A DNA stretch of 64,000 bases from Afipia massiliensis (GTDB lineage Bacteria; Pseudomonadota; Alphaproteobacteria; Rhizobiales; Xanthobacteraceae). A program made the translations under genes and the position numbers. The DNA is taken from positions 1-64,000 of the forward strand of contig NZ_JACHIJ010000011.1 of the NCBI RefSeq assembly GCF_014203115.1, read 5' to 3'. Positions within the stretch are counted from its first letter, which is position 1, and every line of letters starts with the position of its first letter. A model generated the notes under the pieces. That model was not told where the DNA came from. It was given only the letters and a program-made list of their open reading frames with translations, and made no database searches. This document shows positions 7,781 to 54,380 of this stretch, in pieces.

Positions 7781-7858
7781 GTGAAACAGCTAAGGAAATG
7801 GTGAAAATGGAGTCAGTTGGCTAACTGATAAGGAAAGACGCGAAACCTTATCAGTCGA
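7781..7858 (+). repeat. CTGATAAG composite repeat, locus 1
   Basis: A degenerate leading unit (AAACAGCTAAGGAAATG) precedes a full unit: ATGGAGTCAGTTGGCTAACT running into CTGATAAG (7825-7832), a 14-base loop and CTTATCAG (7847-7854). The same arrangement recurs at four other loci in the same orientation. Locus 1 lies in the 630-base gap 7698-8327; I saw no gene in that gap (a GTG-started frame at 7977-8228 is weak). Confidence 0.8.
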
Positions 7859-8327
7859 GCCCGGCGCCAGCCGGATTCGACTAGAAGGCTCCGATCAATC
7901 AAGTCAGCCAAAAGAGAGCTTCGCGCGGCTTAGGTCCCATGCCACATTCACCCGTCACTACTAGCGCAGATAAACAGTGCTAGATCTGGCATTGAAGTAT
8001 CTATTGCTTGCAGCGGGTCGGCGGGGAACGGATCTATGCGCGGTGGCAGCGTTAAGTCCCCAAATGGGGGATGCGAATCGAGCACGTCGGCTTCTTTCTA
8101 AGAAAAAGTCTAAATGCGAGATCGATGTCTATGTCGTCGGCGTCCCATTCGTTTTAAATCAATGTCTCTTGCGGGAACTGCGGAACGAAAACCAAGAAGA
8201 CATTAGGATGGTTGCGAGAGAACAATGAATTTGTTGCCGTGGCTGCGGGACCATCGTTGATGAATGTGGTCGCCTCGTGAATGACTTTGACTACACAGGC
8301 CGTATTCCCTGATCGCTCCGACTTCAT

Positions 8328-8588
8328 TTGATCGAATTTGAAACCAACACAATTGCGTATATGACTGCTGCCCTTGAGCGCGCGTGTAAACGGCTCAAAG
8401 AGGACACTCCAGCCGCGCGGACTTACATAGCTGATCGCCTGGAAGCGTGTGCAAAAGCAGGTGGTAGATCTATGGCAGTGTTCAACGAGGCGGCGGCAAA
8501 AGCGATTGATGATTTGACTGCAACGAGAAGACACCCGGGTCCGGGTATCTGGCAGCGATTGGCACGCTGGAGGCTTTCCAGCCGCTGA
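8328..8588 (+). CDS. small helical hypothetical protein, 86 aa
   Basis: A small, probably cytosolic protein (IEFETNTIAYMTAALERACK, then ARTYIADRLEACAKAGGRSM) of a kind I associate with rhizobial genomes; its function is not known to me. The first codon would be TTG at 8328; an internal ATG at 8361 is the alternative and would lose 11 family-like residues. It ends 63 bases before the CspA leader motif on the same strand. Confidence 0.6.
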   Translation: MIEFETNTIAYMTAALERACKRLKEDTPAARTYIADRLEACAKAGGRSMAVFNEAAAKAIDDLTATRRHPGPGIWQRLARWRLSSR

Positions 8589-8650
8589 AAGCCTTTCATT
8601 GCGTCGGCCTTGGCTATTTTCTCGCCACGCGGGTTCACGCAGGCGGTATC

Positions 8651-8711
8651 TTGTGTGTCGTTGATTTTTCGGATTTGCTCTCGAAGCTTTACCAAATGGA
8701 GATTTTCAAAC
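8651..8711 (+). promoter_or_regulatory. CspA leader with a segment shared with the second CspA gene
   Basis: Bases 8651-8681 match 39673-39703, in front of the other CspA gene, at about 25 of 31 positions (core TTTTTCGGATTTGCT against TTTTTCAGATTTGCT), at nearly the same distance from the start codon (30 and 28 bases). GGAG (8698-8701) then serves the GTG start. Cold-shock mRNAs often have structured 5' leaders; conservation of this one suggests the same. Confidence 0.5.
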
Positions 8712-8915
8712 GTGGCTACGGGCATTGTTAAGTGGTTCAACGGCGCTAAGGGATACGGCTTTATTCAGCCAGACGACGGCAGCAAGGATGTGTTCGTACA
8801 CATCTCGGCGGTCGAGAGGGCAGGACTTTCCAACCTCAGCGAGGGTGCAAAGGTCAGCTACGACGTCGTTCCAAACCGCGGCAAAGAGTCCGCAGAGAAT
8901 TTGCGCATCGGATAA
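8712..8915 (+). CDS. cspA: cold-shock protein, CspA family
   Basis: A 67-residue cold-shock domain (OB fold). It has RNP1-like KGYGFIQPDDG and RNP2-like DVFVHISAVERAG, the aromatic RNA-binding signatures of CspA chaperones. GTG at 8712 is chosen because the upstream in-frame sequence does not look coding and GGAG sits ten bases before it. It is closely similar to the second copy at 39732-39935 and shares its leader segment. Role: single-strand RNA binding and melting of mRNA structure under cold or other stress. Confidence 0.93.
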   Translation: MATGIVKWFNGAKGYGFIQPDDGSKDVFVHISAVERAGLSNLSEGAKVSYDVVPNRGKESAENLRIG

Positions 8916-9115
8916 TCACGGCGAGACTCACAGCCGCCTAAGGACGCGTTCAAAACCGTCCACGGCCTTGTCATCGATATAGCGGGATTTGGTCCGGCGG
9001 AAGAACGACAGGATACTCATGCCGCGCATTCAAGCGCAGGCGAGGACGCGGGTAAATAGTTCTAGATGTGGTTACCGATCGTCGGGGGGAGCTACCGCCT
9101 AGGCCCGGAACGCGA

Positions 9116-9325
9116 TTAGCGATCAGGAAACAGCTTGTCTGTCGCACTATCGAGGCGCGTGTTAGTGCCGCTTGTACTCGCCAAATGTCCAACCAACTCG
9201 CCCGAGAGTCTATAGATATTTGTGCCTCTCAGATTGTAAAGTTTATTTCCCCTCAGATCGTAAACTGAAGAGCCCTTTACCGTCGCGACGGGCTTTCCGC
9301 TGCTATTGAAAATGTTTCCGTCCAT
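9116..9325 (-). CDS. small repeat protein resembling the 4-fold beta flower domain
   Basis: A 69-residue protein built of four short beta repeats, each about 8-11 residues with a glycine turn: GNIFNSSGKPV, GSSVYDLRGNKL, YNLRGTNI, YRLSGELVGHL. This pattern resembles the small 4-fold beta flower domain. No signal peptide or membrane helix. The tail (TSGTNTRLDSATDKLFPDR) is polar. The molecular role of such domains is not established to my knowledge. Confidence 0.65.
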   Translation of the reverse strand: MDGNIFNSSGKPVATVKGSSVYDLRGNKLYNLRGTNIYRLSGELVGHLASTSGTNTRLDSATDKLFPDR

Positions 9326-9486
9326 TGATCTCTCCGCGCGGCGGCTGACAGCCTCGTTGTCTGAGCTTATCGCAGCATGCCGCGATCTGCTAGGTCAGCT
9401 AACTTTACCTACCGGACTCTCCCTCGCCACGAATCGGAATGACGTTCCCCGGCGCATCACGCTCGTCTGAAGAACGGAGTGAACGC

Positions 9487-9630
9487 ATGGTTGGAAAAGC
9501 AGAGACGAAGAGTGCATCGGAACCACGTCATCAGTTGCAAAATGCATGGACGCAAAACGCAACCGCTCAGTGTGCGGGCGAGGGCACCCTATTCCAGCTT
9601 ACGGAGGGCCAGGTACGGTTAGACGGCTAA
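9487..9630 (+). CDS. small hypothetical protein, 47 aa
   Basis: Starts at the ATG at 9487 (MVGKAETKSASEPRHQLQNA), behind ACGGAG with good spacing; the frame is open from 9439. Polar, Gln/Asn-rich, no membrane segment. Its last 32 bases overlap the end of the minus-strand gene at 9599, so the two converge tail to tail. Weak candidate. Confidence 0.35.
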   Translation: MVGKAETKSASEPRHQLQNAWTQNATAQCAGEGTLFQLTEGQVRLDG

Positions 9631-9781
9631 GCGTTTCGACGTGAGCTTCTTCTTCTCTCAGCCGTGATTCAATTAACTTTCTTTCTGACGGGGCTAGATT
9701 GGGCGATTTGAGCAAAAGCTGATAATGGCCAATGATCTTTTGATGGCCCGGAATAAGGAAATCGTCCGCGCTACTAGCCAT
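9599..9781 (-). CDS. small helical protein with an E-R-x-x-I-x-x-R-L-x-E-E-E motif, copy B
   Basis: A 60-residue protein (MASSADDFLIPGHQKIIGHY, then SERKLIESRLREEEAHVETL). Its second half is paralogous to the upstream gene at 9774-10031 (LERNFILKRLSEEEAALAEL). The two overlap by 8 bases, start over stop, so translation is probably coupled. Predicted short amphipathic helices; no known function. Confidence 0.6.
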   Translation of the reverse strand: MASSADDFLIPGHQKIIGHYQLLLKSPNLAPSERKLIESRLREEEAHVETLSRLTVPGPP

Positions 9782-10031
9782 GGCTCCCTTCCCTCAGATC
9801 GAGTTTTGCCCACCCATTGTGGGCTCTTGGTCCAACGTGGAAAGGAAAGGTCTCGTCAGATAGTTCCGCCAAGGCCGCCTCCTCTTCGGACAGCCGCTTC
9901 AAGATGAAGTTGCGTTCCAAATCGGTGAGCTCCGTCTTCAGCAAACGCCGATATCGCCTAATATTGCTGGTACGCGCGCGGATTCGGGCGAGCTTTTCGT
10001 CAATAGCCATCGTCGACACGATATCCTCCAT
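9774..10031 (-). CDS. small helical protein with an E-R-x-x-I-x-x-R-L-x-E-E-E motif, copy A
   Basis: An 85-residue protein: basic N-terminus (ARIRARTSNIRRYRRLLK), then LTDLERNFILKRLSEEEAAL. An AAAGGA element precedes the ATG at 10031; an internal ATG eight codons later is also possible. The downstream gene overlaps its stop codon and repeats the same motif. Both lie downstream of the Hsp20 module in the same direction, with a short gap, so they may be heat-inducible read-through genes. Function unknown. Confidence 0.6.
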   Translation of the reverse strand: MEDIVSTMAIDEKLARIRARTSNIRRYRRLLKTELTDLERNFILKRLSEEEAALAELSDETFPFHVGPRAHNGWAKLDLREGSHG

Positions 10032-10087
10032 TCGTCCTTTCTCGTTGCAGTAAACGGAGCTTCGCGAACGCGAGGCTCCGCTTCCAC

Positions 10088-10426
10088 TTAAAAGCCAACA
10101 GCCGCCGCTGGCTCCTCGAGCATCGGCATACGGAGCGCGGCGCCTCCATGCAGGGGTGGAGGCCCGTTGTCGTCCTCGTCGTCAAGCTGCCGCAAGGCGG
10201 CAAGGATGTCCTTCACAGGCACCGGATTGGCAGAACCTGGAAGTTCGCGAAGCCAAGGATTGTCCCTGACTGCGAACGCATCTGACGCCCATGCAGCAAG
10301 GACGCATCGTTTTTCCATAGGCGAGAGGATCCTGTTCACCAACACCTCGGAGGGGTGGCTAAACATTGCGGCCAAAAGCGAGTTAACATGAATATCCATG
10401 TTCAAGTTGCGCTCAACTGAACTCAT
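10088..10426 (-). CDS. Hsp20-linked protein, 112 aa (paralogue of 18344-18670)
   Basis: A conserved small protein whose partner copy is at 18344-18670. Shared blocks include FSHPSEVL, the SP-x-EKRCVLA-x-WASDAFAVR segment, NPWLR-x-LPGS, KDIL-x-AL-x-x-LDDE and a Pro-rich tail ending AAVGF or EAVGF. Both copies sit next to an Hsp20 gene, here 98 bases downstream of it on the same strand. AGGAG elements precede the ATG. No membrane segment. The linkage suggests an accessory protein of the small heat-shock response; the function is not known to me. Confidence 0.75.
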   Translation of the reverse strand: MSSVERNLNMDIHVNSLLAAMFSHPSEVLVNRILSPMEKRCVLAAWASDAFAVRDNPWLRELPGSANPVPVKDILAALRQLDDEDDNGPPPLHGGAALRMPMLEEPAAAVGF

Positions 10427-10523
10427 GGTCGTTTCTCCTATTTACTCCTTCCTGTTGTTGAATGATGCACGCTTCCGCCGACATCCGTGTCGACGGAAGC
10501 TATGCGGACCGCGAATGGCGGTT

Positions 10524-10973
10524 TTAGGCAGCCTTATGATCGATACGCTGGACGTTGCTTTGTCCATCAATCGCGATTCGACGAGGCTTCATCGCTTCCG
10601 GGATTTCCCTAACCAGTTCGATACGCAGCAGGCCATTATCAAAGGACGCGTTCCGTACCTGTACGTAATCGGCGAGGTTGAACTGCCGGCGGAAGTGGCG
10701 CTCGGAAATCCCCTGATAGAGATACTCGCGCTTCTCGTCCGTCTTGCACCCTTCAACCGTCAGCACATTTTGCTCGGCCGTGACGTTGATCTCATCCGGC
10801 CGGAATCCCGCCAGCGCGACCGATATTTGGTATCGATCCTCGCCCAGCTTTTCGATGTTGTAGTGTGGATAATGAGCCTCCGTCTGCTGCTGTGCAGCAT
10901 CCAAGAGGTCGAAGAGACGGTCGAATCCGACCGAAGACCGCCATAGCGGGGTAACATCAAATGCAGTTCTCAT
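10524..10973 (-). CDS. small heat-shock protein, Hsp20/alpha-crystallin family
   Basis: A 149-residue class A rhizobial-type small heat-shock protein. The N-terminal arm is RTAFDVTPLWRSSVGFDRLF; the alpha-crystallin domain covers about residues 35-130, with the DNGLLRIELVREIPE region carrying the G-x-L signature. An ATPase-independent holdase that binds unfolding proteins in the cytosol. GGAGG at the usual distance selects the ATG at 10973 over one five codons upstream. The leader is a ROSE-type thermosensor. It is about 85 percent identical by eye to the Hsp20 at 18953-19405, so the module was duplicated. Confidence 0.95.
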   Translation of the reverse strand: MRTAFDVTPLWRSSVGFDRLFDLLDAAQQQTEAHYPHYNIEKLGEDRYQISVALAGFRPDEINVTAEQNVLTVEGCKTDEKREYLYQGISERHFRRQFNLADYVQVRNASFDNGLLRIELVREIPEAMKPRRIAIDGQSNVQRIDHKAA

Positions 10974-11078
10974 AGCCAAATCCTCCACTGAGCAAGATGG
11001 TTACAAGCGGGCCGCCGAACACCGTCGGTGCCCGTCTCCACCGGACCCCCAAGGGGCGTCCGGACCGTTGTCGGCAGG
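10974..11078 (-). promoter_or_regulatory. ROSE-type RNA thermometer in front of hsp20, copy 1
   Basis: Read on the complement, the leader contains GGTCCGGACGCCCC, then GGGGGTCCGG, GAGACGGGCACC, and ends CTTGCTCAGTGGAGGATTTG before the start codon. This is the order of ROSE elements: stem-loops I-III, then a final hairpin in which a U-U/C-G-C-U segment covers the GGAGG ribosome site. Heating opens that hairpin. The same architecture is at 18855-18952. Confidence 0.9.
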
Positions 11079-11414
11079 ATAAAAATTAGAAAAACGGCTG
11101 CGGGTTTCAAGCCTCGCTCAAAAAAATTTGGAGAGAATGGGATTGGTTAAAGGGGAGGAAGGCCGCTCGACGAAAATCCCCGCGGTCTGCGATCTGCCTA
11201 AACTGCGCGGCTGGCATTCATAATCTGAAGAAGAAATCGGTCCTCGGGCCGGCCTGAACCTCAGCATACCACTGCGGTGCCCTTCGTGGGCGCTCCTCTC
11301 TAAACTCAGGCCACTATTTCGATCGGAGACGCAGCCCGGGAGACGAAAACCCAAGGCCGCCGGGGTCCCATGCCTCATGTTGTTCGGTTTTGCGGCGGCG
11401 ACGGGTGAGAGCGG
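11079..11414. other. intergenic stretch upstream of the ROSE leader
   Basis: This 336-base stretch should contain the hsp20 promoter (minus strand). A minus-strand frame at 11118-11378 shows no ribosome site or recognisable domain and I do not accept it. Nothing else is seen. Confidence 0.3.
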
Positions 11415-12200
11415 TCAAGGCTTCAGACCCGCTCCCAGCTTCGCCCACGCCTCGGCGTCGAACTTCCGAGCTTCTTCCAAAGCAACATCGAAGGCGGACG
11501 GTTCGGTCTGCTTAAGGGGACCTCGAAATCATCCCTGATCTTGTCATCGGCGTAGAGGGAAGTTGTGTGCCGCTCCTTCCACCGCTGCTCAATTCTGGCG
11601 AAGAAATTTCGAGATTTACTCGTACCTGAGCGGGCTTGCAGCTTTTTCCAAAGCAAGGGCCTTGCTCGCCAAGTGAGTTTGCCAAGCGACGGCACCGCGC
11701 AGCCTGGAACCTCAAGATCTGTGATCTGACGGGATTCCGTTACATCGATTAGGATGTTGACCGCTCCGACGAGCAAGCGGGTCGGCCCGAACAACGGTGT
11801 GGGGAACGGCAAGAAATTTACGCGTGTGCCATCGGGACGTTCGGCTATCGCAGTCATTCCCCGAATTCGTTGCTTCGTCCGAAGAGTCGCCGCCATGGGG
11901 CATTCCGAATGCGGTCGAAAGCTGCCGTCGTCTGCGTATAGCTTCCACGTTACGCACCATTGATCTTTACCGATCGTCGGAGTGCGCTCGGCAAAGCCAC
12001 ACAAGCCGTATTGTAATAGGTGATTGTTCCGCTGACCTCAGTGATAGAGAGGAGCGCTAATGGACTCCAAAGCCGCGAACAAGGCATCGTCGCCGCTTCC
12101 CACGGCATTAACGACGTCGCGCAATACGCAAATTGTTCCAATCGTTTCGCGCAGGATTTGCTTTGGTGCCGTGCGTGCCATGCCAGGGCTGCCCATATGC
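11415..12200 (-). pseudogene. PAS-domain sensor gene, frameshifted remnant
   Basis: Three frames join into one PAS-type protein: ALFAALESISAPLY (frame ending 12038), then TEVSGTITYYNTA (frame 11950), then FAERTPTIGKDQWCVTWKLY and ERPDGTRVNFLPFPTPL with GAVNILIDVTE (frame 11423). The region after about 11720 is less clear; its tail in a further frame reads EPSAFDVALEEARKFDAEAW and stops at 11415. At least three frame changes are needed. The intact protein was probably a PAS/PAC sensor, perhaps a histidine kinase; no kinase domain survives. Confidence 0.65.
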
Positions 12201-12368
12201 CAGCGAAGGCGAATAGTGGGCGCTCGTGGCTTTTGATTGAGGCGGACCAAGTAAGTGCCGGGCGCCGGAGTTCAAGCGGGCGACGAACGGGCCGTCTCGC
12301 GGTCCGATCTTCGTCCCGCCCTTTTTCCTGCGCGGCACCTCTGAATCAGACACGGCGGCATGACTTCA

Positions 12369-12548
12369 TCAGCGAGCAAATCGATCGCGCTCCGCGGCAA
12401 TCCGGCCGCAATCATCGACGGTCGTTCCGCACTGGCGGCAGACAAACTCGGAATTGGTTCTGAGCCACTCGATGGACCTCGCGGTTTTTGTGCCGCAGTT
12501 CGGGCAGGGGACTTCGAGTTCAAGGTATTTCGGGGCTGTAATGAGCAT
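12369..12548 (-). CDS. micro zinc-ribbon protein, 59 aa
   Basis: The reading frame starts MLITAPKYLELEVPCPNCGT and ends AAERDRFAR. Two cysteine knuckles, C15-P-N-C-G and C-R-Q-C-G about 24 residues later, form a classic zinc ribbon, with another Cys in VDDCGR. The spacing and clean frame argue for a real gene. No strong ribosome site is visible. Two membrane micro-genes lie just upstream on the same strand. Possible roles are nucleic-acid or protein binding; unknown. Confidence 0.55.
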   Translation of the reverse strand: MLITAPKYLELEVPCPNCGTKTARSIEWLRTNSEFVCRQCGTTVDDCGRIAAERDRFAR

Positions 12549-12590
12549 TTGGGAAATCCAGATCTATCATCCAGCAGAAAATTTGCTGGA

Positions 12591-12677
12591 TCAGCCAAGT
12601 ACTTTGATGGCAGTGGCGACCAAAATGGTCGCAGCCGCCACGTATCCGTAAACGATAAGACGTCGGTTGAATTCCAT
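12591..12677 (-). CDS. membrane microprotein, 28 aa
   Basis: The frame encodes MEFNRRLIVYGYVAAATILV plus a short tail (ATAIKVLG) and stops. A basic N-terminus followed by one hydrophobic helix predicts an inner-membrane microprotein with the N-terminus in the cytosol. It starts six bases after the stop of the 34-residue frame at 12684-12788. No clear ribosome site; support is composition and tight packing. Confidence 0.4.
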   Translation of the reverse strand: MEFNRRLIVYGYVAAATILVATAIKVLG

Positions 12678-12683
12678 CGTTCG

Positions 12684-12788
12684 TCAACGCAATGCGATGA
12701 ACAGGAACGTCCCAGCGAGCAGCGCGATCCCGAAATAGGAGGCGCTAATGAAGCCGTTGCAAACGCCCCTGAGCTGGGTCGTGGACAT
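12684..12788 (-). CDS. membrane microprotein, 34 aa
   Basis: Starts MSTTQLRGVCNGFISASYFG, continues with a hydrophobic helix (IALLAGTFLFIALR) and stops six bases before the next micro-gene. One membrane span predicted. The three micro-genes at 12369-12788 run in the same direction with 6- and 42-base gaps, like a miniature operon. Function unknown. Confidence 0.4.
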   Translation of the reverse strand: MSTTQLRGVCNGFISASYFGIALLAGTFLFIALR

Positions 12789-13100
12789 AACGCACCCGGT
12801 GTTCTGACTGGATGCGATGATGCTCCGCAATTTATTAAAGATTTAAGAATCGTCCGAGTTCCAATCGCGACCGTTGAGACCGGCGCTTGTCCCCTCAGGT
12901 CACAGGGGGATTTGACGCGTGAAGCATCATCCGAGCCCAACAAGATGTGCCGAAGATACTGAAAACGTGGATTGTTGTTTCTGGTTGGAGCGCATCGAAA
13001 CTGTGCTGAAGGATGGCGCGAAAGAGCAGCGCGTTCAGACGCAATTGCTCGAGCAGATCGCCAACGAGAACATCATCAATCCGCGCCGCCTGCGGGGAAT
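12789..13100. other. intergenic region, no gene accepted
   Basis: Overlapping frames cross this stretch on both strands (12272-12943 minus, 12360-12962 plus) but both read through the micro-genes and have low-complexity composition. A plus frame from 12919 contains a helical piece (LERIETVLKDGAKEQRVQ) that may be a gene fragment. Confidence 0.25.
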
Positions 13101-13285: not shown

Positions 13286-13360
13286 CCCCAAGTCCCGCGC
13301 CGCGAAAGAGGTCGCGGTTCTCTCCGCTAGCTGTGATTGATGATGAAATTACAGTCAGTC

Positions 13361-13440
13361 AATCAACTGCTAAGGAAACTACAGAAATGGAGTCAGTTGG
13401 CTAACTGATAAGGAAAGGTCACAAAGCTTATCAATTGTCG
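13361..13440 (+). repeat. CTGATAAG composite repeat, locus 2
   Basis: A degenerate leading unit (ACAGTCAGTCAATCAACTGC) is followed by a full unit, ATGGAGTCAGTTGGCTAACT and CTGATAAG (13405-13412), and a closing arm CTTATCA (13427-13433). It lies about 290 bases upstream of the exported CHAT gene, which has another copy just downstream. Confidence 0.8.
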
Positions 13441-17134: not shown

Positions 17135-17198
17135 TTCTGATGTTTATGCCGTCACTCATCGCACGTTTAGCAATCCGTCAGCTGGCTCATAGTGAAAC

Positions 17199-17292
17199 TA
17201 CAAAATGAAGTCAGTCGCTAATTGATAAGCAAAGAGACAAAATGGAGTCAGTTCGCTCACTGATGGAAATATGAGAAAGCTTATCAGTCGCG
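17199..17292 (+). repeat. CTGATAAG composite repeat, locus 3 (two units)
   Basis: Unit 1 ATGAAGTCAGTCGCTAATTG with GATAAG, unit 2 ATGGAGTCAGTTCGCTCACT with GATGG, about 37 bases apart, then the closing AAAGCTTATCAGT (17276-17288). It begins about 65 bases after the CHAT stop codon. Confidence 0.8.
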
Positions 17293-18854: not shown

Positions 18855-18952
18855 TTTATCGGCCCGGGTGCCCTTCGGGGGTCCGGAGGAGACGGGCACC
18901 GGAGCTGTTCGGTGCTCGCTTGTATCCAACTTGCTCAGTGGAGGATTTGGCT
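18855..18952 (+). promoter_or_regulatory. ROSE-type RNA thermometer in front of hsp20, copy 2
   Basis: The leader reads GGCCCGGGTGCCC, GGGGTCCGGAGGAGACGGGC, CACCGGAGC...GCTCG and ends ACTTGCTCAGTGGAGGATTT before the start. The order of stems and the terminal TTGCT...GGAGG pairing match ROSE elements, as at copy 1. Melting of the last hairpin on heating would free the GGAGG. Confidence 0.9.
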
Positions 18953-19405
18953 ATGAGAACTTCTTACGACTTCACCCCGTTCTGGCGGTCATCTATCGGC
19001 TTCGACCGTCTGTTTGACCTCGTTGATGCTGCGCAGCAGCAGGCTGAGGCTCACTATCCGCCGTATAACATTGAGAGACTGGGCGATGATCAATACCAGA
19101 TCTCCCTGGCGTTGGCGGGATTCCGCCCCGACGAGATCAATGTTACGGCCGAGCAGAATGTGCTTACAATTGAAGGGCGCAAGACGGACGAAAAGCGCGA
19201 GTATCTCTACCAAGGTATTTCTGAGCGTCATTTCCGTCGACAATTCAACCTCGCGGACTATGTGCAGGTAAGGAATGCGTCCTTTGACAATGGGCTTTTG
19301 CGCGTCGAATTGGTCCGGGAGATCCCGGAAGCGATGAAGCCTCGGCAGATCGCCGTCAACGGCGTTTCAAACGCCCAGCAACTCGACTCGAAGGCCGCCG
19401 CATAA
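18953..19405 (+). CDS. small heat-shock protein, Hsp20/alpha-crystallin family
   Basis: A 150-residue small heat-shock protein: N-arm RTSYDFTPFWRSSIGFDRLF, alpha-crystallin domain about residues 35-130 (YQISLALAGFRPDEINVTAE; DNGLLRVELVREIPE), C-terminal tail SKAAA. The GGAGG of the ROSE leader sets the start at 18953. Paralogue of 10524-10973; most differences are conservative. A GC-rich hairpin (19433-19456, CCCCGC...GCGGGG) follows the stop but lacks a T-run, so it is only a possible terminator. Confidence 0.95.
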   Translation: MRTSYDFTPFWRSSIGFDRLFDLVDAAQQQAEAHYPPYNIERLGDDQYQISLALAGFRPDEINVTAEQNVLTIEGRKTDEKREYLYQGISERHFRRQFNLADYVQVRNASFDNGLLRVELVREIPEAMKPRQIAVNGVSNAQQLDSKAAA

Positions 19406-30965: not shown

Positions 30966-30977
30966 TCGCAAATTGAT

Positions 30978-31008
30978 CCGCGCCGCGTTCTGGTGGCGCG
31001 GCTTTTTT
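30978..31008. terminator. Rho-independent terminator (copy 1)
   Basis: CCGCGCC pairs with GGCGCGG, followed by CTTTTTT. It sits 13 bases after the DUF3551 stop, so it probably ended that transcript. Confidence 0.8.
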
Positions 31009-31071
31009 GTTCTGGCTGTCCGTCATGCCAATGTGGAGCCCAGCTTTTGATCCGGCACGGGCGTCCAGTCG

Positions 31072-31269
31072 TCAGGTTGGCCGCTCGAGAGGCGCTTCGC
31101 CATCGAGCCAGTCCTGTTCGTCGGCGAGGGCACGCCACGCCTCCGCCATTCGGCGGTATCGTTTCGCTTTGATCTCATCGTTCGCAGCCTCCGCGAGTTG
31201 CAGGCAATTCTCGGCGTTCTCTCGAAACGCGCTGGATTACTTAACGGTCGTGGTTTTTGCTTTATCCAT
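31072..31269 (-). pseudogene. 65-codon conserved protein, copy 1, nonsense codon 11
   Basis: Same sequence as the intact copy at 49315-49512, except that codon 11 is TAA (MDKAKTTTVK then stop) where copy 2 has GAA. The rest (SSAFRENAENCLQLAEAAND, YRRMAEAWRALADEQDWLDG) is preserved, so inactivation is recent. A short restart inside the gene is possible but no internal ATG is well placed. Confidence 0.85.
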
Positions 31270-31608
31270 GGTCGATCCGGCTTTTCACGCCCGAGGATCT
31301 CGGCGGGCCGTGCACAATATGAGCGACGGCCGCTTGCGCCACAAGGTCCGGCACCTGGCAATCCGCCGCCACATGATCGCCTAAACGCCGGCCACGACGT
31401 GGGGCGCGTCTTGCTGCGATTTGGGGAGGGCTAGGACGTAGTGCCCGCGCATTCTTCACGGGTGCTATAGGCCGGATAAGCCGGGTTTCCCAAGACACGG
31501 ACGCACTCCACGCAACGCGGACTCAAGTGCCAGTCCGTTCCGGCGACGCCACGATGAAACTTAACACGACCATCTGCTTCTCCTTAGAGCAGCCGAGGAA
31601 GGGTCGTC

Positions 31609-43268: not shown

Positions 43269-43279
43269 GCTATTTTCTC

Positions 43280-43822: not shown

Positions 43823-43961
43823 AAGATTGTGTTTGGCCGAGCTTCTGTGATTCAAACTTCCAAGTTAGGAACGTCGATTTCGAATCCAGAGACGTGTTGA
43901 TGGATGTCGGCGTCTCTAAAGGGTGAGCATCTTCGGCGATTACCGAGAATCGTCACCGATC

Positions 43962-44258
43962 TTAAACTGCGTCTTTCGCTATCTTCAGCCGTGAGGCCTT
44001 CACTGACTTGCTGGCGGGCTTGGCAGCGAATTCCATCGGCTCTTTCGTAAAAGGATTGATGCCTGAGCGAGCCTCGGTGGCTGGCTTGTTCACAACGGAC
44101 ATTTTCACGAAACCGGGGACAACGAACTCTCCCGATTCGTTCAACTCCCTGTAACCCACCGTCGCCATCTCTTCGATCACGGACTTCACGTCGCCTCTAG
44201 AGATCTGAGTAGCTTCAGCAATAGTATCGATCAATTGGTTCTTGGTCATCTTGGCCAT
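43962..44258 (-). CDS. HU-family DNA-binding protein, copy 1
   Basis: A 98-residue HU/IHF fold: MAKMTKNQLIDTIAEATQIS, a GFVKMSVVNKPATEAR beta arm and the DNA-intercalating tip GINPFTKEPMEF; the tail is lysine-rich (KPASKSVKASRLKIAKDAV). It bends DNA and compacts the nucleoid. It is about 92 percent identical in protein to the copy at 53977-54273, but codon usage differs widely, so the copies are not recent. Stands alone between DUF3237 and gene debris. Confidence 0.95.
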   Translation of the reverse strand: MAKMTKNQLIDTIAEATQISRGDVKSVIEEMATVGYRELNESGEFVVPGFVKMSVVNKPATEARSGINPFTKEPMEFAAKPASKSVKASRLKIAKDAV

Positions 44259-44459
44259 GATTGCTCCTACGATTGATCATGCCGTCTACTGCATTGGTTC
44301 GGCCTGTCCAGAACTTGAGTTCGTAAAAGCCGATTGCCTAAACAAATGCATCGGCGCTGAGCACGACCCATACATGCAGCCCTCTGTTTCGTCTAACGAC
44401 GTGGTTTTGCGGTGACTGCGCGGCACGCATCTACGCGAGCGCGCAGGACGGTCTGACAT
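44259..44459. other. intergenic
   Basis: No gene. Holds the HU promoter region. Confidence 0.3.
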
Positions 44460-46700: not shown

Positions 46701-46702
46701 GG

Positions 46703-49066: not shown

Positions 49067-49220
49067 CGCAAACAGTCGATCCAGTCCGTCAACTCGTCGA
49101 TTCTGTCACACAGAAAGTCTTTCAGGCTGCGAATTGACTTGGCTCTACCAGCATGCGCCGGTCCAACTCGTCATTTCCTACCATCGTAGATGCCTAGTTC
49201 CGATCACCGGATTAATTGAT

Positions 49221-49251
49221 CCGCGCCGCGTTCTGGTGGCGCGGCTTTTTT
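49221..49251. terminator. Rho-independent terminator (copy 2)
   Basis: CCGCGCC...GGCGCGG followed by CTTTTTT, as at 30978. It ends transcription from the DUF1330 operon about 155 bases after its stop. Confidence 0.8.
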
Positions 49252-49314
49252 GTTCTGGCTGTCCGTCATGCCAATGTGGAGCCCAGCTTTTGATCCGGCA
49301 CGGGCGTCCAGTCG

Positions 49315-49512
49315 TCAGGTTGGCCGCTCGAGAGGCGCTTCGCCATCGAGCCAGTCCTGTTCGTCGGCGAGGGCACGCCACGCCTCCGCCATTCGGCGGT
49401 ATCGTTTCGCTTTGATCTCATCGTTCGCAGCCTCCGCGAGTTGCAGGCAATTCTCGGCGTTCTCTCGAAACGCGCTGGATTCCTTAACGGTCGTGGTTTT
49501 TGCTTTATCCAT
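49315..49512 (-). CDS. small conserved protein, 65 aa (intact copy)
   Basis: MDKAKTTTVKESSAFRENAE, NCLQLAEAANDEIKAKRYRR, MAEAWRALADEQDWLDGEAP. A helical protein of a family I know as abundant in Bradyrhizobium, often in several copies. Function unknown. The copy at 31072 has a stop at codon 11. Downstream of it on the plus strand (minus reading 49640-49730), GEVIVTLSDARAYTLPKAKQ is the start of another small gene, apparently broken. Confidence 0.75.
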   Translation of the reverse strand: MDKAKTTTVKESSAFRENAENCLQLAEAANDEIKAKRYRRMAEAWRALADEQDWLDGEAPLERPT

Positions 49513-49610
49513 GGTCGATCCGGCTTTTCACGCCCGAGGATCTCGGCGGGCCGTGCACAATATGAGCGACGGCCGCTTGCGCCACAAGGTCCGGCACCTG
49601 ACCATCCGCC

Positions 49611-49932
49611 GCAAGCATGTTTTCGGCGACGCCGGCCAGAACGTGCGGGGTCTTGTTGCTTGGCTTTGGGCAGGGTGTAGGCCCGTGCGTCTGACAACGT
49701 GACGATTACCTCGCCGTTCGCGGGAGCCACGGGGCGGATGCCGCAGGAGGCTTACGCGCGGCTGTAGTAGATTCGGATGGTCGCAAAAGGCGAATGCTCA
49801 CCGGCCGCTGGCAGCCCGCGCTATGCTATTTCATCCGTGTTCTGAAGCGTTGCGGCGGGAGACGATAAGCAAGCCAAGTCGGTCATTTCATAACTATGTA
49901 TGTCCGCGTCTGGCGCAAAGCCGACATTCGCG
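49611..49932. other. intergenic with a broken small gene
   Basis: On the minus strand the stretch below 49730 reads MAPANGEVIVTLSDARAYTL and then loses its frame into the duplicated block. Otherwise no gene. Confidence 0.3.
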
Positions 49933-50042
49933 AACTGACAAGAAGAAAGCTGAGATGGGGTCAGTCAGCTAACTGACAAGAAAATAGCGAAAATGGAGTC
50001 GGTCGCTAACTGATAAAGAATCGTCGGAAAGCTTATCAGTTA
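49933..50042 (+). repeat. CTGATAAG composite repeat, locus 4 (three units)
   Basis: Unit tail AACTGACAAGAAGAAAGC, a full unit ATGGGGTCAGTCAGCTAACT with GACAAG, a second ATGGAGTCGGTCGCTAACTG with ATAAAG, then AAAGCTTATCAGT (50028-50040). The units are 35-40 bases apart. Located between the minus-strand small gene and the MarR-controlled tautomerase. Confidence 0.8.
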
Positions 50043-50303
50043 CTTCATGTGCGAATGCCTGCTTTTTGCGTTAGGCGGACAACCGGATTAACGCTCGGCG
50101 TGCCGCATCTCGTCACCAGCCTCGTTGCACCGGAGGAAAAACTGGCCGCCGCCCCGGCGCGTATTACTCTTCCCAGTTGAACAAAATTGCGCCTGACTCA
50201 GGAAAGCAGTCCTGATTGGAGCTGCGCGGCTGGTCGCAAGCACCCTTGCAGGAGGCGGTCTGCCGTAGCGCCGGCGTGGGCGCAGTTGCAAACTTTCATT
50301 TAA
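50043..50303. other. intergenic
   Basis: No gene accepted (a minus frame at 50088-50318 crosses the operators). Precedes the tautomerase promoter. Confidence 0.25.
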
Positions 50304-50339
50304 GGGTATATACCTCAATTGAGATGTGGGTATGTACCG
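50304..50339. promoter_or_regulatory. two GGGTRTRTACC operator-like sites
   Basis: GGGTATATACCT (50304-50315) and GGGTATGTACCG (50328-50339), 24 bases apart, 42 bases upstream of the tautomerase start. The same core (GGGTGTATACCC) is in the dyad in front of the MarR gene at 51395, so the three sites look like one regulon. Binding by that MarR is inferred. Confidence 0.65.
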
Positions 50340-50380
50340 ACGTTTGAGTGACTCGCTATGTCGCAGGAGGGGATGGTTTA

Positions 50381-50764
50381 ATGCCTTTGGTAAAACTGAA
50401 CATTCGTCGCGGAAGACCCGCCGAACTCAGGCGCAAGATTTTGAGTGCGGTCCAGTCTGCGCTGGTTGAGACAATGAGCGTGCCTGATGCCGACAAGTTT
50501 CAACTCGTCAATCAGTATGACGAGGAGGATTTCGTCCACACGGCGGCATACCTCGACATGAATTACTCTCGCGATCTTGTCATGATCGAGATCATTTTTA
50601 TCGAGGGGCGGAGCGACGAGATTAAGAAGTCTTTGATTGCTGCGATCAGCAAAAAGATTGTCGCGGCGACCGGAATGAATTCGGATGATGTTTTCCTGAT
50701 GATTCAAGAAGTTAACCGTACAAACGTCTCCTTCGGCCGGGGCGTGGCGCAGCGAGCAGCTTGA
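50381..50764 (+). CDS. tautomerase-superfamily protein (4-OT-like, N-terminal Pro)
   Basis: A 127-residue double-length tautomerase fold. After removal of Met the N-terminus is P-L-V-K-L-N-I-R-R-G-R, giving the catalytic Pro1 and a basic patch. Then RRKILSAVQSALVETMSVPD and VMIEIIFIEGRSDEIKKSLI. AGGAGG is placed correctly for 50381; a frame from 50348 also exists. Such enzymes isomerise 2-hydroxymuconate-type or act on similar dienols. Next gene is 10 bases downstream. Confidence 0.88.
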   Translation: MPLVKLNIRRGRPAELRRKILSAVQSALVETMSVPDADKFQLVNQYDEEDFVHTAAYLDMNYSRDLVMIEIIFIEGRSDEIKKSLIAAISKKIVAATGMNSDDVFLMIQEVNRTNVSFGRGVAQRAA

Positions 50765-50774
50765 GGAGATTGTA

Positions 50775-51365
50775 ATGAGATTTATGTCGAGACGTATGTT
50801 TTCAGCGATTGCCGTCGCAGCCCCTGCGATTATCGTGAAGGTTGGAGAGGCTGCAGCGCAAGGCGGCGGTGTCATCGACGCCAAGCTGCAGGAACGGAAT
50901 ATCGTGCTTCCGAAACCGACGTTCGTTCCTGCCGATGTTGCAAGAATTCCAATCAGATGGGTCATTGTGCAGGGTGACCGCGCCTACATCTCGGGGCATG
51001 TGGCATCGGATCCTGCGGGCGTCATTGGCACTGCGGAGGGCGGTCCCTATGGCAAGGTCGGGAAAGAGGTGTCGGAAAAAGAGGCGTACGATTATGCGCG
51101 GCGGGTGGGTCTTTCCATTTTGGCCGATCTGAAGCGCGAACTCGGCACGCTGGATCGGGTAGATCGTTGGCTTCGTGTTTTTGGCATGGTGAATGCCATC
51201 GACGGATTCGCCAAGCAGCCGGCGGTCGTCAATGGTTTCTCTGATCTCATTCTCGACGTGTGGGGACCGGACCGTGGCACGCATGCGCGCTCCGCTGTTG
51301 GCCTGGCTGGACTCCCGTTCAACGCTCCGGTCGAGATTGAAGCGGAAGTCCTGATACGCGCCTGA
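50775..51365 (+). CDS. exported RidA-family protein with a twin-arginine signal
   Basis: A 196-residue protein. N-terminus MRFMSRRMFSAIAVAAPAII has S-R-R-M-F, a Tat motif, with cleavage after AAA. The rest is a RidA-type fold (WVIVQGDRAYISGHVASDPA; YDYARRVGLSILADLKRELG; PFNAPVEIEAEVLIRA). RidA proteins in the periplasm are unusual; the Arg before the last strand is replaced by Pro-Val (PVEIEAEV). It follows the tautomerase with the same operon spacing. It may act on an extracytoplasmic enamine or be a structural relative. Confidence 0.85.
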   Translation: MRFMSRRMFSAIAVAAPAIIVKVGEAAAQGGGVIDAKLQERNIVLPKPTFVPADVARIPIRWVIVQGDRAYISGHVASDPAGVIGTAEGGPYGKVGKEVSEKEAYDYARRVGLSILADLKRELGTLDRVDRWLRVFGMVNAIDGFAKQPAVVNGFSDLILDVWGPDRGTHARSAVGLAGLPFNAPVEIEAEVLIRA

Positions 51366-51380
51366 CGGTTGGGCGATAAA

Positions 51381-51414
51381 TTGACGAATCCATAATGCGG
51401 GTGTATACCCGCAT
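51381..51414 (+). promoter_or_regulatory. marR promoter with overlapping operator
   Basis: TTGACG (51381-51386), 17 bases, TATACC (51404-51409). The dyad ATGCGGGT-GTAT-ACCCGCAT (51395-51414) covers the -10 box. A start of transcription about seven bases after the -10 falls on the ATG at 51416, so the mRNA may be leaderless. This is autoregulation by sequence logic. Confidence 0.65.
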
Positions 51415-51415
51415 C

Positions 51416-51835
51416 ATGGATATGGATACATGCATCTGCACAGGCTTGCGGCAGGCCGCCTTTGACATCACGGAAATCTACGATTCATATCTGGAGCCGT
51501 CCGGCCTAAAGATTACGATGTTCAGGGTTCTGCGGCGGCTATCCTCCGCGGAGCAGGCTTCGATTACGGAGCTTGCCGTTATCGTGGGTGTGGACAGGAG
51601 CACGCTCGGCCGCAACCTGCGAGTCCTGGAGCGAATGAATCTTGTGGCCTTTGAAGAGGCCGAAGATGCGCGGAGCAGAACGATTGTCCTTACCGCCTTG
51701 GGCCGGACAACGCTCGCGAAAGCGACCCCGTTGTGGGTAAAAGCGCAGACAAAAATGCGTTCGGTGCTTGGAGAAGAATTGAAGTCGGTCTTTGTAGCCA
51801 TGACGAAGGTCAAGCACGCAGCAGAGGCTCAATAA
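51416..51835 (+). CDS. MarR-family regulator
   Basis: A 139-residue (or 137 from ATG 51422) MarR winged-helix protein: ITMFRVLRRLSSAEQASITE, LAVIVGVDRSTLGRNLRVLE, then wing EDARSRTIVLTALGRTTLAK. The N-terminus carries two Cys (DTCICTG). It probably represses the tautomerase-RidA operon and itself through GGGTRTATACC sites. An ATG at 51395 would start inside the operator and is rejected. The inducer is likely an aromatic or unsaturated acid; unknown. Confidence 0.9.
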   Translation: MDMDTCICTGLRQAAFDITEIYDSYLEPSGLKITMFRVLRRLSSAEQASITELAVIVGVDRSTLGRNLRVLERMNLVAFEEAEDARSRTIVLTALGRTTLAKATPLWVKAQTKMRSVLGEELKSVFVAMTKVKHAAEAQ

Positions 51836-51910
51836 GGCAATCAATCTCCGGCAAAGCAATCTTCGCCCATCGATCTGGAGCGCTTCTGCGGTTCGGCGAT
51901 GTTCTCGCCG

Positions 51911-52108
51911 TCACGTTTTTTGGACCACCTGATGAAGGATGTCGCGCAGGTCCGACGCAGCGGAAGATAGCTCGGCTCTCGTCAGCATCCGCTGTTCGAT
52001 CGGAGGCAGCGGCGGAAAACCGAACTCCGTAACGGCGTCGCGAATACCTGGCGGGATGCGGTGGTGGTTGGGTGAGATGCCGTATCCGGAGCGGAGGGCT
52101 GCCCACAC
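51911..52108 (-). pseudogene. LysR-type regulator, C-terminal fragment
   Basis: GYGISPNHHRIPPGIRDAVT then EFGFPPLPPIEQRMLTRAEL and SAASDLRDILHQVVQKT: the last 60 residues of a LysR effector domain (G-I/V-T...LPPIE..L..A pattern). The rest, with the HTH, is missing at 52108. It diverges from the MFS gene, so the pair was probably a regulator-transporter unit cut by a rearrangement. Confidence 0.7.
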
Positions 52109-52213
52109 ACTAGGGAGGACTAGGTGTTGTCAAAGACAGTGGCGCAGCCGATTATCATGCCCGATCTAATCGACCATCATCGTCGATGTGTGCAACAGAG
52201 TCGAAATGGAGCG

Positions 52214-53473
52214 ATGCGCTGCATATTTGCTTGCGCCCTTCGCCCCTTCTGGAACCTGTTGCCAAAGCCCCCATGGGGCCGCGTCGACAGATCGACCAAT
52301 CCTGAGCCGGAGTATTCCCACCGTGATGTCGCGGTCGTTGCTGCGCTGGCGCTTGCGCCTGCAATCGGCCTCGGCATCGCACGTTTCGCCTATGCGTTGG
52401 TCCTTCCCGACATGCGCGCCGATCTTCACTGGTCCTATGCGGATGCGGGTTGGATGAACACAACCAATGCCGCCGGCTATCTGCTTGGAGCCTTGGTCGC
52501 CGCACGGGCAATCGCGGCTGTGGGCGGATATCGCGTCATGGTCGCCGGCGCGTGGGTTTGCGTCGCGTCGCTTGTGCTCTGCGCCTTGTTCCGGCACACC
52601 GTTCCGCTTAATGCCGCCAGAGTGCTGGCTGGACTTGGCGGCGGCTTTGCCTTCGTGTCGGGCGGCGTGCTTGCTGCTGGTGTTGCGCAGCGCAACCCGG
52701 AGCGTGCCGCCTTCCTGCTCGGCCTGTTCTATGCCGGACCCGGCCTTGGCATCCTGCTATCGGGCGTCGCCGTTCCCTTCACCCTGGAACGCTTCGGGTC
52801 GGGATCGTGGGGCATGGCATGGGCAGCGCTCGCCATTCTCTCCTTGCCTCTCGCTTTCGGCCTCCATCTGGCGCGGGCCGAAAGCGCGACGGCTCCACCA
52901 TCTGCGCAAACGAGTCCGCGCTACGGAAACATGCGCTGGCTGCTTTGCGGCTACCTGTTCTTCGGGGCGGGTTATATCGCCTACATGACCTTCATGATCG
53001 CTTGGGTGCAGGGCAGCGGCGGCGGAGTCAGTTTCCAGGCTCTATTTTGGGCGGTCATCGGACTTGCGACGATGGCCTCACCGTGGCTGTGGACCGCGAT
53101 CCTCAAGCGGCTCCTGCACGGGCACGCCTGTGCTGTCCTGACCGGCATCGCCGCCTTCGGCGTCATGCTGCCGCTTATGTCAAATACGATGCCTATGTTG
53201 CTCGCATCGGCAGCGTTATTCGGCAGCGCATTTTTCGCGGTGGTGGCTGCGACGACTGCCTTCGTGCGGCGCAACCTTCCGCAAGCTGAATGGGCATCTA
53301 GCATCGGAACTCTCACCGTCGTCTTCGGGATCGGCCAGATGCTCGGGCCGGTCGCTATCGGCTTGGTCAACGATGTGATGCAGAATCTCTCGGGCGGACT
53401 ATGGGCTTCTGTGCTGCTTCTGTTCATCGCCGCGATGCTCGACGCATTGCAGCGGGATCGTGGCGCAACATGA
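52214..53473 (+). CDS. MFS transporter, YbfB/YjiJ-like
   Basis: A 419-residue transporter, about twelve helices: VVAALALAPAIGLGIARFAY, LPDMRADLHWSYADAGWMNT, NAAGYLLGALVAARAIAA as in YbfB/YjiJ proteins. The start is uncertain: ATG 52214, TTG 52124 and ATG 52160 are all in frame, and the conserved part begins at about DRSTNPEPEYS, so the true 5' end may have been replaced by the same junction that cut the LysR gene. Substrate unknown. Confidence 0.8.
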   Translation: MRCIFACALRPFWNLLPKPPWGRVDRSTNPEPEYSHRDVAVVAALALAPAIGLGIARFAYALVLPDMRADLHWSYADAGWMNTTNAAGYLLGALVAARAIAAVGGYRVMVAGAWVCVASLVLCALFRHTVPLNAARVLAGLGGGFAFVSGGVLAAGVAQRNPERAAFLLGLFYAGPGLGILLSGVAVPFTLERFGSGSWGMAWAALAILSLPLAFGLHLARAESATAPPSAQTSPRYGNMRWLLCGYLFFGAGYIAYMTFMIAWVQGSGGGVSFQALFWAVIGLATMASPWLWTAILKRLLHGHACAVLTGIAAFGVMLPLMSNTMPMLLASAALFGSAFFAVVAATTAFVRRNLPQAEWASSIGTLTVVFGIGQMLGPVAIGLVNDVMQNLSGGLWASVLLLFIAAMLDALQRDRGAT

Positions 53474-53976
53474 AAGGATGTCCGGGCAAGAATTCCGAGA
53501 TAGAGCGACACCGGCAGGTCGCGCGGTTGGGAACCCGCAGGTGTGAACGCGATCATTCATCGTCAGGGTATGCCGCGGCTCACAAGAAGTCCCTCGTTCG
53601 GCCAGGCGAATTATTTAAGTCTCTGCAGACAACCCGGCAACTCGGCTGCGCGATCGATGACGCGGCGATTTCGGTACCCAGGATGACGTCCCGCGTCACG
53701 GATGATCGGTTGCCGGTCATCGGCAGGATCGTGCGGGTGTCGCATCTGAACTAACTATTGCGCTAGGAAGCACCATTTCGACAATCCAAGGCGAGAAATA
53801 AATTTTAGGTCGAGAATACATCCAGTCGCCAACCGAATGGAGGAAGAGAAAGCTTATCAGCTAGATTGACACTTCGAGGGCCAGTTTGTTTGTGCGGCGT
53901 ATGCATCGGTTTGCTCGCGTTCTGGACATCCTGATTCAATCCGAGTAGACGGCACCCTCAATTCAGAGGAACATTC
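53474..53976. other. intergenic region before HU copy 2
   Basis: No gene accepted. AAAGCTTATCAGC at about 53849-53861 is an isolated closing arm of the CTGATAAG repeat. The HU ribosome site GAGGAACATTC is at the end. A plus frame at 53401-53754 has no domain. Confidence 0.3.
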
Positions 53977-54273
53977 ATGGCCAAGATGACAAAGAACCAG
54001 TTGATCGATGCTATTGCCGAGGCCACCCAGATTTCTAAGGGTGATGTAAAGTCCGTGATCGAGCAAATGGCAACAGTGGGCTACAAGGAACTGAATGAAT
54101 CTGGCGAGTTCGTTATCCCCGGATTTGTCAAGATGTCGGTTGTGAACAAGCCTGCTACGGAAGCCCGCAGTGGCATAAATCCTTTCACAAAGGAGCCAAT
54201 GGAGTTCGCGGCCAAGCCTGCTAGCAAGTCGGTTAAAGCGTCGCCGCTGAAGGTGGCGAAGGATGCGGTCTAG
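53977..54273 (+). CDS. HU-family DNA-binding protein, copy 2
   Basis: A 98-residue HU: MAKMTKNQLIDAIAEATQIS, EQMATVGYKELNESGEFVIP, GINPFTKEPMEF and a KPASKSVKASPLKVAKDAV tail. Nearly the same protein as 43962-44258 (seven or so differences), with many silent changes. GAGGAAC precedes the ATG. The composite repeat starts one base after its stop codon. Confidence 0.95.
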   Translation: MAKMTKNQLIDAIAEATQISKGDVKSVIEQMATVGYKELNESGEFVIPGFVKMSVVNKPATEARSGINPFTKEPMEFAAKPASKSVKASPLKVAKDAV

Positions 54274-54274
54274 C

Positions 54275-54380
54275 CTGATAAGGAAATTACGAAATGGAGT
54301 CAGTTAGCTGACTGATAAGAAAGATGAGAAATGGAGTCAGTTGGCTAATTGATAAGCAGAAGGCGAAAATTCATCAGTCG
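54275..54380 (+). repeat. CTGATAAG composite repeat, locus 5 (two full units)
   Basis: Begins CTGATAAGGAAATTAC just after the HU stop; unit 1 ATGGAGTCAGTTAGCTGACT with GATAAG, unit 2 ATGGAGTCAGTTGGCTAATT with GATAAG 37 bases later, then a diverged closing arm (AAATTCATCAGTCG). It lies between HU copy 2 and the TetR gene, downstream of HU in the same transcript. Confidence 0.8.

What the first reader, a model, noticed from the sequence alone, without database searches (positions are those of the whole stretch)
7781..54380. Dispersed composite repeat: tandem 37-bp units closed by a palindromic arm
At 7781, 13361, 17199, 49933 and 54275 the same intergenic element occurs. Each has one or more units with ATGGAGTCAGTT..GCTAACTGATAAG, about 37 bases apart, and one closing arm near AAAGCTTATCAGT. 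A lone hairpin at 3082 and a lone arm near 53849 also exist. All are in the same orientation although neighbouring genes point both ways. The closing arm is single even where units repeat, which differs from ordinary REP palindromes.
Basis: seen in the sequence. Interest (0 to 1): 0.75.

Follow-up and report, generated by a model that had tools for sequence, protein, structure and literature searches.

The report
Integron-like gene-shuffling array, different recombinase
In the bacteria Afipia and Bradyrhizobium a repeated 32-base DNA site sits at the ends of gene blocks that have changed neighbours between genomes, and a small recombinase encoded at the head of the array likely cuts and rejoins these sites, which would make it a gene-shuffling system like the integron but built from different parts.

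Summary
The repeats are real and specific (6 unit and 4 hairpin matches in the window, none in 100 shuffles each), but they do not fit a REP family. They read as tandem 32-bp recombination-type cores: 13-bp arm, 6-nt variable centre, 13-bp inverted arm. The layout recurs in other Afipia and Bradyrhizobium. Of 118 oriented elements, 22 cross-genome pairs share a left-flank family and only 1 of these also the right; 11 share the right and 1 also the left. Eleven of 116 ends of homologous blocks lie within 50 bp of a site in both genomes (0 in 500 shifts). A 12-kb block is site-bounded at both ends in two genomes, with homology stopping inside the 6-nt centre. In the window a 431-bp HU-gene block starts inside one core and ends where the next element begins. 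Most likely an integron-like cassette array with its own recombinase, not a member of the integron family. No activity has been shown.

The parts
1552..2127 (-). small tyrosine recombinase, 191 aa, catalytic domain only
   Evidence: PF00589 E 4.7e-18 over residues 8-178 of 191; catalytic residues R, K, HxxR, H, Y readable in the translation (motif recalled)
521..1516 (-). Cys-rich partner protein, 331 aa, no Pfam, NCBIfam or PADLOC match
   Evidence: 3983 homologues; beside the recombinase at 16 of 16 recombinase loci (broken in G162)
3081..3112 (+). lone near-symmetric 32-bp core, 954 bp upstream of the recombinase start codon; candidate int-proximal (attI-like) site, centre GTCGCC
7786..7855 (+). 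element 1: unit-type core plus closing core (centres TGGTGA, GACGCG)
13366..13435 (+). element 2: unit-type core plus closing core (CTACAG, GGTCAC)
17191..17288 (+). element 3: degenerate unit, unit-type core (GAGACA), closing core with a 2-nt deletion
49934..50040 (+). element 4: two unit-type cores plus closing core (AAGCTG, TAGCGA, CGTCGG)
53843..53861 (+). half core (centre plus right arm): 5' end of the HU cassette
   Evidence: homology to G018 starts here
53843..54273 (+). single-gene cassette; HU-family gene 53977-54273 (PF00216)
   Evidence: 91.7% to G018:C66:7001-6571, ending at the stop codon where element 5 starts
54274..54378 (+). element 5: two unit-type cores plus a worn closing core, beginning directly after the HU stop codon
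54379..64000 (+). start of a catabolic-gene block that runs to contig position about 65842
   Evidence: 75% to G015:C13:30259-41468, where the block lies between two elements

Best explanation
The repeats are 32-bp core sites that lie at the ends of gene blocks which have changed neighbours between genomes, and they are predicted to be the targets of the catalytic-domain-only tyrosine recombinase and its Cys-rich partner encoded at the head of the array, an arrangement that likely works like an integron. Shown from sequence: each core is a 13-nt arm (ACTGATAAGSWWW), a variable 6-nt centre and a 13-nt inverted arm; cores lie, mostly in one orientation, on the 5' side of the recombinase gene; blocks are exchanged between genomes with breakpoints at or inside cores. 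Inferred: the recombinase and partner bind the arms, strands are exchanged across the 6-nt centre, a block leaves as a circle and re-enters at another core or at the int-proximal core. A block then starts with the closing-type right arm and ends with a left arm, so only one closing arm is seen per junction, while the 37-38-bp units are minimal right-arm/linker/left-arm pieces stacked at block ends. Recurrent 6-nt centres are inferred to act as compatibility labels. The partner probably supplies the DNA-binding role of the missing core-binding domain.
For: Core anatomy: kept hits score 15-48 bits, top score 10.8 in one base shuffle of the same 1.65 Mb. Layout: 65 of 68 elements on recombinase-carrying stretches lie 5' of the recombinase gene; of 30 with unit-type cores, all are on that side and 27 on the opposite strand. 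Co-occurrence: among 146 Bradyrhizobium genomes, 11 of 12 with a full-length partner have core sites versus 31 of 134 others, Fisher 3.7e-6; with any partner match 12 of 18 versus 30 of 128, 4.1e-4. Int-proximal core: 17 of 20 recombinase loci have one within 2.1 kb upstream; 10 of the 17 carry the centre TCAGAA and/or TGAGAG. Exchange: 11 of 116 block ends lie <=50 bp from a site in both genomes, 0 in 500 shifts; a 12-kb block is site-bounded at both ends in two genomes, homology ending inside the centre, TTG|CTG versus TTG|AAC; 22 left-sharing pairs, 1 also right-sharing; 11 right-sharing, 1 also left-sharing. Labels: 384 core pairs share a centre versus 8.7 expected. Window: HU cassette.
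Against: No recombination, circle or DNA binding has been observed. Sites also occur without a detected partner: 9 of 13 site-bearing Afipia and 30 of 42 site-bearing Bradyrhizobium. One Bradyrhizobium with a full-length partner has no detected site (G245). Homologous recombination between the repeats would also put breakpoints at sites. 105 of 116 block ends are not at sites in both genomes. Three of 30 unit-bearing elements are on the wrong strand and 3 of 68 elements on the wrong side. Centres differ at the two ends of the 12-kb block, so strict centre identity is not required.
Confidence: 0.77

Rival explanations
1. The elements are passive REP/BIME- or MITE-like repeats of a genomic island. 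Ordinary homologous recombination between copies exchanges the blocks, and the nearby recombinase is a bystander.
For: Repeated ~100-bp elements can seed RecA-type exchange; many genomes have sites without a detected partner; REP elements are known in Bradyrhizobium (PMC5082802, abstract and passages seen).
Against: Matches in the window's genome are few (8) and 6 of them on one contig; no Y1 (RAYT-type) transposase match in this genome, while the same search rings in 5 of 14 control genomes including E. coli; Br-REP1/2 consensus sequences differ from these; orientation is tied to the recombinase; core anatomy is that of a tyrosine recombinase site (recalled); at the best-resolved junction homology ends inside a 6-nt centre flanked by only 13-bp arms.
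Confidence: 0.16
2. The elements are polar replication-terminus sites (fork trap or FtsK/dif-related), which would explain strand bias around a point.
For: In G011, G108 and G101 the orientation appeared to diverge from a point, and in G101 the GC skew changes sign across the array region.
Against: No dif-like match in the window; in 13 genomes 2 had a hit, both on other contigs than the arrays; the point is the recombinase locus; GC skew shows no clear flip there in G011 or G108.
Confidence: 0.02
3. The elements are RNA-level or regulatory structures (terminators, operators, riboregulators) common to one island.
For: Hairpin-forming and, in the window, between the larger reading frames.
Against: No Rfam match at gathering score other than two ROSE elements; breakpoints of exchange coincide with them; reading frames on both strands flank them.
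Confidence: 0.03

Closest known systems
Integron (sedentary chromosomal), IntI/attI/attC
   Same: Tyrosine recombinase gene at one end, an int-proximal site, an array of sites at cassette ends, cassettes reassorted between genomes, clusters of sites without integrase (CALIN; PMC8618304, passages seen)
   Different: Recombinase is catalytic-domain-only and scores 13 bits against the IntI model (cut-off 265); a partner gene is present; sites are 32-bp 13-6-13 cores with variable centre, not attC; int-proximal sites share the array arms; blocks shown here are 0.43 kb (one gene) and 12 kb, while integron cassettes generally hold a single ORF
pdif / Xer modules of Acinetobacter plasmids
   Same: Modules flanked by Xer-type core sites (PMC7399989, passages seen); variable 6-nt centre (recalled)
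   Different: They are attributed to host XerC/XerD and one cited title calls the sites inversely oriented; here arms are 13 bp with other sequence, no XerD half-site in 134 elements, own recombinase gene, mostly one orientation
GInt genomic islands
   Same: Tyrosine recombinases moving cargo DNA with an accessory protein
   Different: GInts carry a ginABCD operon with three integrases and a small protein and excise as one island (PMC5385486, passages seen); here one small recombinase plus a 331-aa partner and an array of sites
Br-REP1/Br-REP2 of Bradyrhizobium
   Same: Intergenic palindromic repeats in the same lineage
   Different: Other consensus sequences; Br-REP1 is at about 200 sites of the B. 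japonicum USDA 110 genome (PMC5082802, abstract and passages seen)

Membership tests
Integron | IntI-family integrase | tested here: not met
   TIGR02249 13 bits, cut-off 265; PF00589 spans 8-178 of 191, leaving no room for a core-binding domain
Integron | attC sites with RYYYAAC and GTTRRRY boxes (consensus recalled) | tested here: not met
   1 of 134 elements, 0 of 6 window elements, 0 of 134 random stretches
Integron | Site array in one orientation beside the integrase gene | tested here: met
   27 of 30 unit-bearing elements 5' of the recombinase and on the opposite strand; 65 of 68 elements on the 5' side
Integron | Cassettes bounded by sites and reassorted | tested here: met
Integron | Cassette excision and insertion by the integrase | not testable with these tools
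   needs an experiment
pdif / Xer module | XerC/XerD (dif-like) site (consensus recalled) | tested here: not met
   (window); 0 of 134 elements with TTATGTTAA <=1 mismatch
GInt | ginABCD operon with three integrases | tested here: not met
   one recombinase plus a partner without PF00589; the next PF00589 protein recognised in G108 lies about 10 kb away; no gin model was searched
REP/BIME | RAYT (Y1) transposase in the genome | tested here: not met
   PF01797 0 matches in the own genome; control rings in 5 of 14 genomes
REP/BIME | Many copies scattered genome-wide | tested here: not met
   8 matches in 5.33 Mb, 6 on one contig
HhH-GPD DNA glycosylase fold (partner protein) | Fold match | tested here: inconclusive

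The most novel reading that the evidence does not exclude
A second class of gene-capture platform besides integrons: a split tyrosine recombinase (catalytic protein plus a glycosylase-like partner) that shuffles single genes and whole gene clusters through an oriented array of double-stranded cores, using recurrent 6-nt centres as address labels that decide which cassettes can join.
Probability: 0.5. Interest if true: 0.93.

Novelty: new variant of a known kind. Interest (0 to 1): 0.85.

Why it matters
Integrons are the familiar platform in which a tyrosine recombinase keeps an oriented array of exchangeable cassettes. A different set of parts doing the same in Bradyrhizobium and Afipia, with blocks from one gene to 12 kb carrying for example catabolic genes, would show that the strategy arose more than once, could explain part of the variable gene content of these bacteria, and would offer a recombinase whose 6-nt centres can be tested as labels at once. 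It would also suggest a role for a protein family with thousands of members that, where a source names them at all in our listing, are called hypothetical.

Tried and rejected
Rfam: only two ROSE elements. Replication terminus/dif: suggested by the orientation flip in G011/G108/G101, rejected after dif searches, GC skew (G101 alone changes sign in the region) and after the recombinase pair was found at the flip. REP/BIME with RAYT: rejected. attC boxes: rejected. Viral contigs: no unit match. Partner by sequence: no Pfam match at E<=1 for the window's protein and only weak, scattered ones among 50 homologues, no NCBIfam or PADLOC match, no convincing PDB relative; by fold only weak DUF2419/TAG similarity, so its role is inferred. 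Mutual information along the core gave no clear single crossover point.

What was dropped or added before counts: one of the 32 stretches of the named-genome scan (L095, Coprothermobacterota) is not scored by the model and is taken as chance. In one search, 16 genomes behind the 17 named loci were searched (L093 is not held). One search used 172 of 212 cores (>=24 bits, orientation known); one search used 118 of 134 elements (16 lacked orientation), its flank families are single-linkage. The ungapped scanner missed window elements at 53843 and 54274 and half of 17191; three window intervals were added by hand (none is among the 11 junctions). Searches count recombinase hits of at least 150 aa; the second G250 locus (recombinase in two pieces) and the second G182 locus (no recombinase hit) were left out. 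A first Fisher test for any partner match used 13 of 18, a miscount; one search gives 12 of 18. One full-length partner (G122) has an in-frame stop.

Literature: eight searches of open-licence full texts listed no paper that, by title and abstract start, describes these sites or a two-gene recombinase-partner array in Bradyrhizobium or Afipia (listings are capped); I looked inside five papers (PMC5082802, PMC8138268, PMC5385486, PMC8618304, PMC7399989), passages only, plus the abstract of the first. Subscription papers and preprints were not searchable.
Full report
OBSERVATION. The five elements, the lone hairpin and the lone arm exist as described. The unit pattern matches 6 times in the window, all on the + strand, and 0 times in 100 shuffles; the hairpin pattern 4 times versus 0. 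The contig (C11) is 82,849 bp, the genome 5.33 Mb in 19 contigs. A further element lies at C11:74175-74244. Genome-wide a covariance model built from ten copies finds 8 matches at E<=0.1: six on C11, one each on C5 and C6.

WHERE IT OCCURS. A pattern scan of named genomes gave 32 stretches: 27 Bradyrhizobium, 4 Afipia and 1 unrelated that the model does not score. Sites occur in 13 of 29 Afipia genomes (E<=0.1) and closing-type cores (<=1 mismatch) in 42 of 146 Bradyrhizobium (reversed-pattern control 0). In genomes with several copies these tend to cluster within about 30-150 kb, for example G104, G109, G188 and G011, but some genomes also have distant copies, for example G168, G140, G250 and G253.

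ANATOMY. Aligning copies shows a 32-bp core: ACTGATAAGSWWW, six variable bases, then a right arm of closing type (WWWSCTTATCAGT, the inverse of the left arm) or unit type (AAAYGGAGTCAGT). Tandem cores are joined by a 5-6-nt linker, which gives the 37-38-bp period. This is the layout expected of a tyrosine recombinase core (recalled knowledge). Hits kept at 15 bits or more reach 48 bits; the top score in one base shuffle of the same 1.65 Mb was 10.8. The scanner was trained on these stretches. Later counts use a threshold of 14 bits.

THE RECOMBINASE. Comparing four array regions by protein revealed one conserved gene pair: window 1552-2127 (minus), a 191-aa tyrosine recombinase that is almost only catalytic domain, and window 521-1516 (minus), a 331-aa protein with 10 invariant cysteines in an alignment of 50 and no known family. 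A survey of tyrosine recombinases describes simple ones as usually core-binding plus catalytic domain (PMC8138268, passages seen). Catalytic residues are readable in the sequence (motif recalled). The database search returned 3983 partner homologues and 7998 recombinase homologues among the 7999 candidates scored, the latter possibly including other tyrosine recombinases. All 16 recombinase loci have the partner beside it (broken in G162); two further stretches have a partner only. In a class-wide sample 2 of 385 genomes matched the partner: the own genome and one same-family genome with a broken fragment.

LAYOUT. On recombinase-carrying stretches, 65 of 68 elements (20 bits or more) lie on its 5' side (exceptions G113, G111, G182). 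Of 30 with unit-type cores all lie on that side and 27 are on the opposite strand (exceptions two in G011, one in G108). The stretches were chosen around sites, so the side count is partly biased. A core lies within 2.1 kb upstream of the recombinase in 17 of 20 loci, at 74-162 bp in seven of them; none was found within 3 kb at G103:C119, G111:C8 and G106:C91. Ten of the 17, all Bradyrhizobium, carry the centre TCAGAA and/or TGAGAG. The four loci were not in the scanner's training set.

CO-OCCURRENCE. In the 146-genome Bradyrhizobium panel, partner matches occur in 18 (12 full length, one with an in-frame stop), sites in 42; 11 of 12 full-length cases have sites versus 31 of 134 others (Fisher 3.7e-6); for any partner match 12 of 18 versus 30 of 128 (4.1e-4). 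In Afipia 4 of 29 have the partner and all 4 have sites (Fisher 0.03). Many genomes have sites without a detected partner: 9 of 13 in Afipia, 30 of 42 in the panel.

EXCHANGE AT THE SITES. In 46 stretches (2.42 Mb, 212 cores, 134 elements) I found 63 homologous blocks between genomes (>=1 kb, >=78% identity) with 116 internal ends; 11 ends lie within 50 bp of a site in both genomes, while 500 circular shifts of the sites never gave one. Some of the 11 involve the same boundary (G104, G110, G188), so they are not all independent; 105 ends are not of this kind. The clearest case is a 12-kb block, G104:C10:33858-45984 and G109:C2:430845-442976 (89%), bounded by cores at both ends in both genomes with unrelated neighbours; at its 3' end the homology runs through the left arm into the centre and stops there, TTGCTG versus TTGAAC. 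Of 118 oriented elements, 22 cross-genome pairs fall in the same left-flank family and 1 of these also in the same right-flank family; 11 share the right and 1 also the left; some left-sharing pairs are recombinase loci.

IN THE WINDOW. The HU-family gene (53977-54273) lies in a 431-bp block that is 91.7% identical to a piece of G018. Homology begins in the centre of a half core at 53843 and ends at the gene's stop codon, where element 5 starts; no site was seen after the gene in G018. The following catabolic block (54.6-65.8 kb of the contig) matches G015 at 75%, where it lies between two elements; in the window no site was found at its far end.

LABELS. 172 oriented cores have 92 different centres, yet 384 pairs share one versus 8.7 expected after column shuffling. 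GGTCGC is in 18 elements of 13 genomes with 17 left and 17 right flank families; CTAACA in 14 elements with 14 and 14. This suggests that matched centres favour joining, but the differing centres at the two ends of the 12-kb block show that identity is not absolute.

MECHANISM. I commit to recombinase-plus-partner exchange within the 6-nt centre of paired cores, releasing and inserting blocks. Cores as block boundaries are shown; the enzyme assignment, the circles, the label role and the partner's part are inferred. The partner's predicted fold is mediocre and only weakly similar to DUF2419 and a DNA glycosylase.

SETTING. In G108, G011, G113, G106 and G109 a tRNA-Lys(CTT) lies on the far side of the recombinase pair; in G108 a 340-aa integrase sits beside it and GC content drops there from about 0.65 to 0.55, so the array probably sits in a tRNA-Lys genomic island.

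VERDICT. It works like an integron but fails the integron membership tests (IntI, attC), and also those for Xer modules, GInts and REPs.

Noticed in passing
window 10524-10988 (-) and 18920-19405 (+): Two Hsp20 reading frames (PF00011) overlapping ROSE thermosensor matches at 10967-11063 (-) and 18864-18959 (+), arranged as an 82% inverted repeat.
   Followed up: partly
window 43958-44314 (-): Second HU-like copy, about 80% identical to the cassette copy in inverted orientation, without a site seen beside it.
   Followed up: partly
window 30971-31270 and 49214-49513: A 300-bp direct repeat with 100% identity, 18 kb apart; the surroundings of both resemble G015:C13 near 68.7-69.1 kb.
   Followed up: no
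L135:10102-11261 (G108) and tRNA-Lys in G011, G113, G106, G109: tRNA-Lys(CTT) at what looks like the island edge; in G108 a 340-aa integrase lies next to it; possibly the island's own attachment site.
   Followed up: partly
G011:C10:402283-409915: Four neighbouring elements, two on each strand; local duplication or inversion is possible.
   Followed up: no
G121, G126, G137, G232: Equally scoring partner-gene fragments (profile positions 179-334, one TAA) in four Bradyrhizobium genomes without detected sites: probably decayed copies.
   Followed up: no
G000:C5:58222 and C6:7546: Two lone closing-type cores of the own genome on other contigs; the C5 one lies near what reads like the 3' end of a tRNA gene, but ARAGORN called no tRNA there.
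   Followed up: partly
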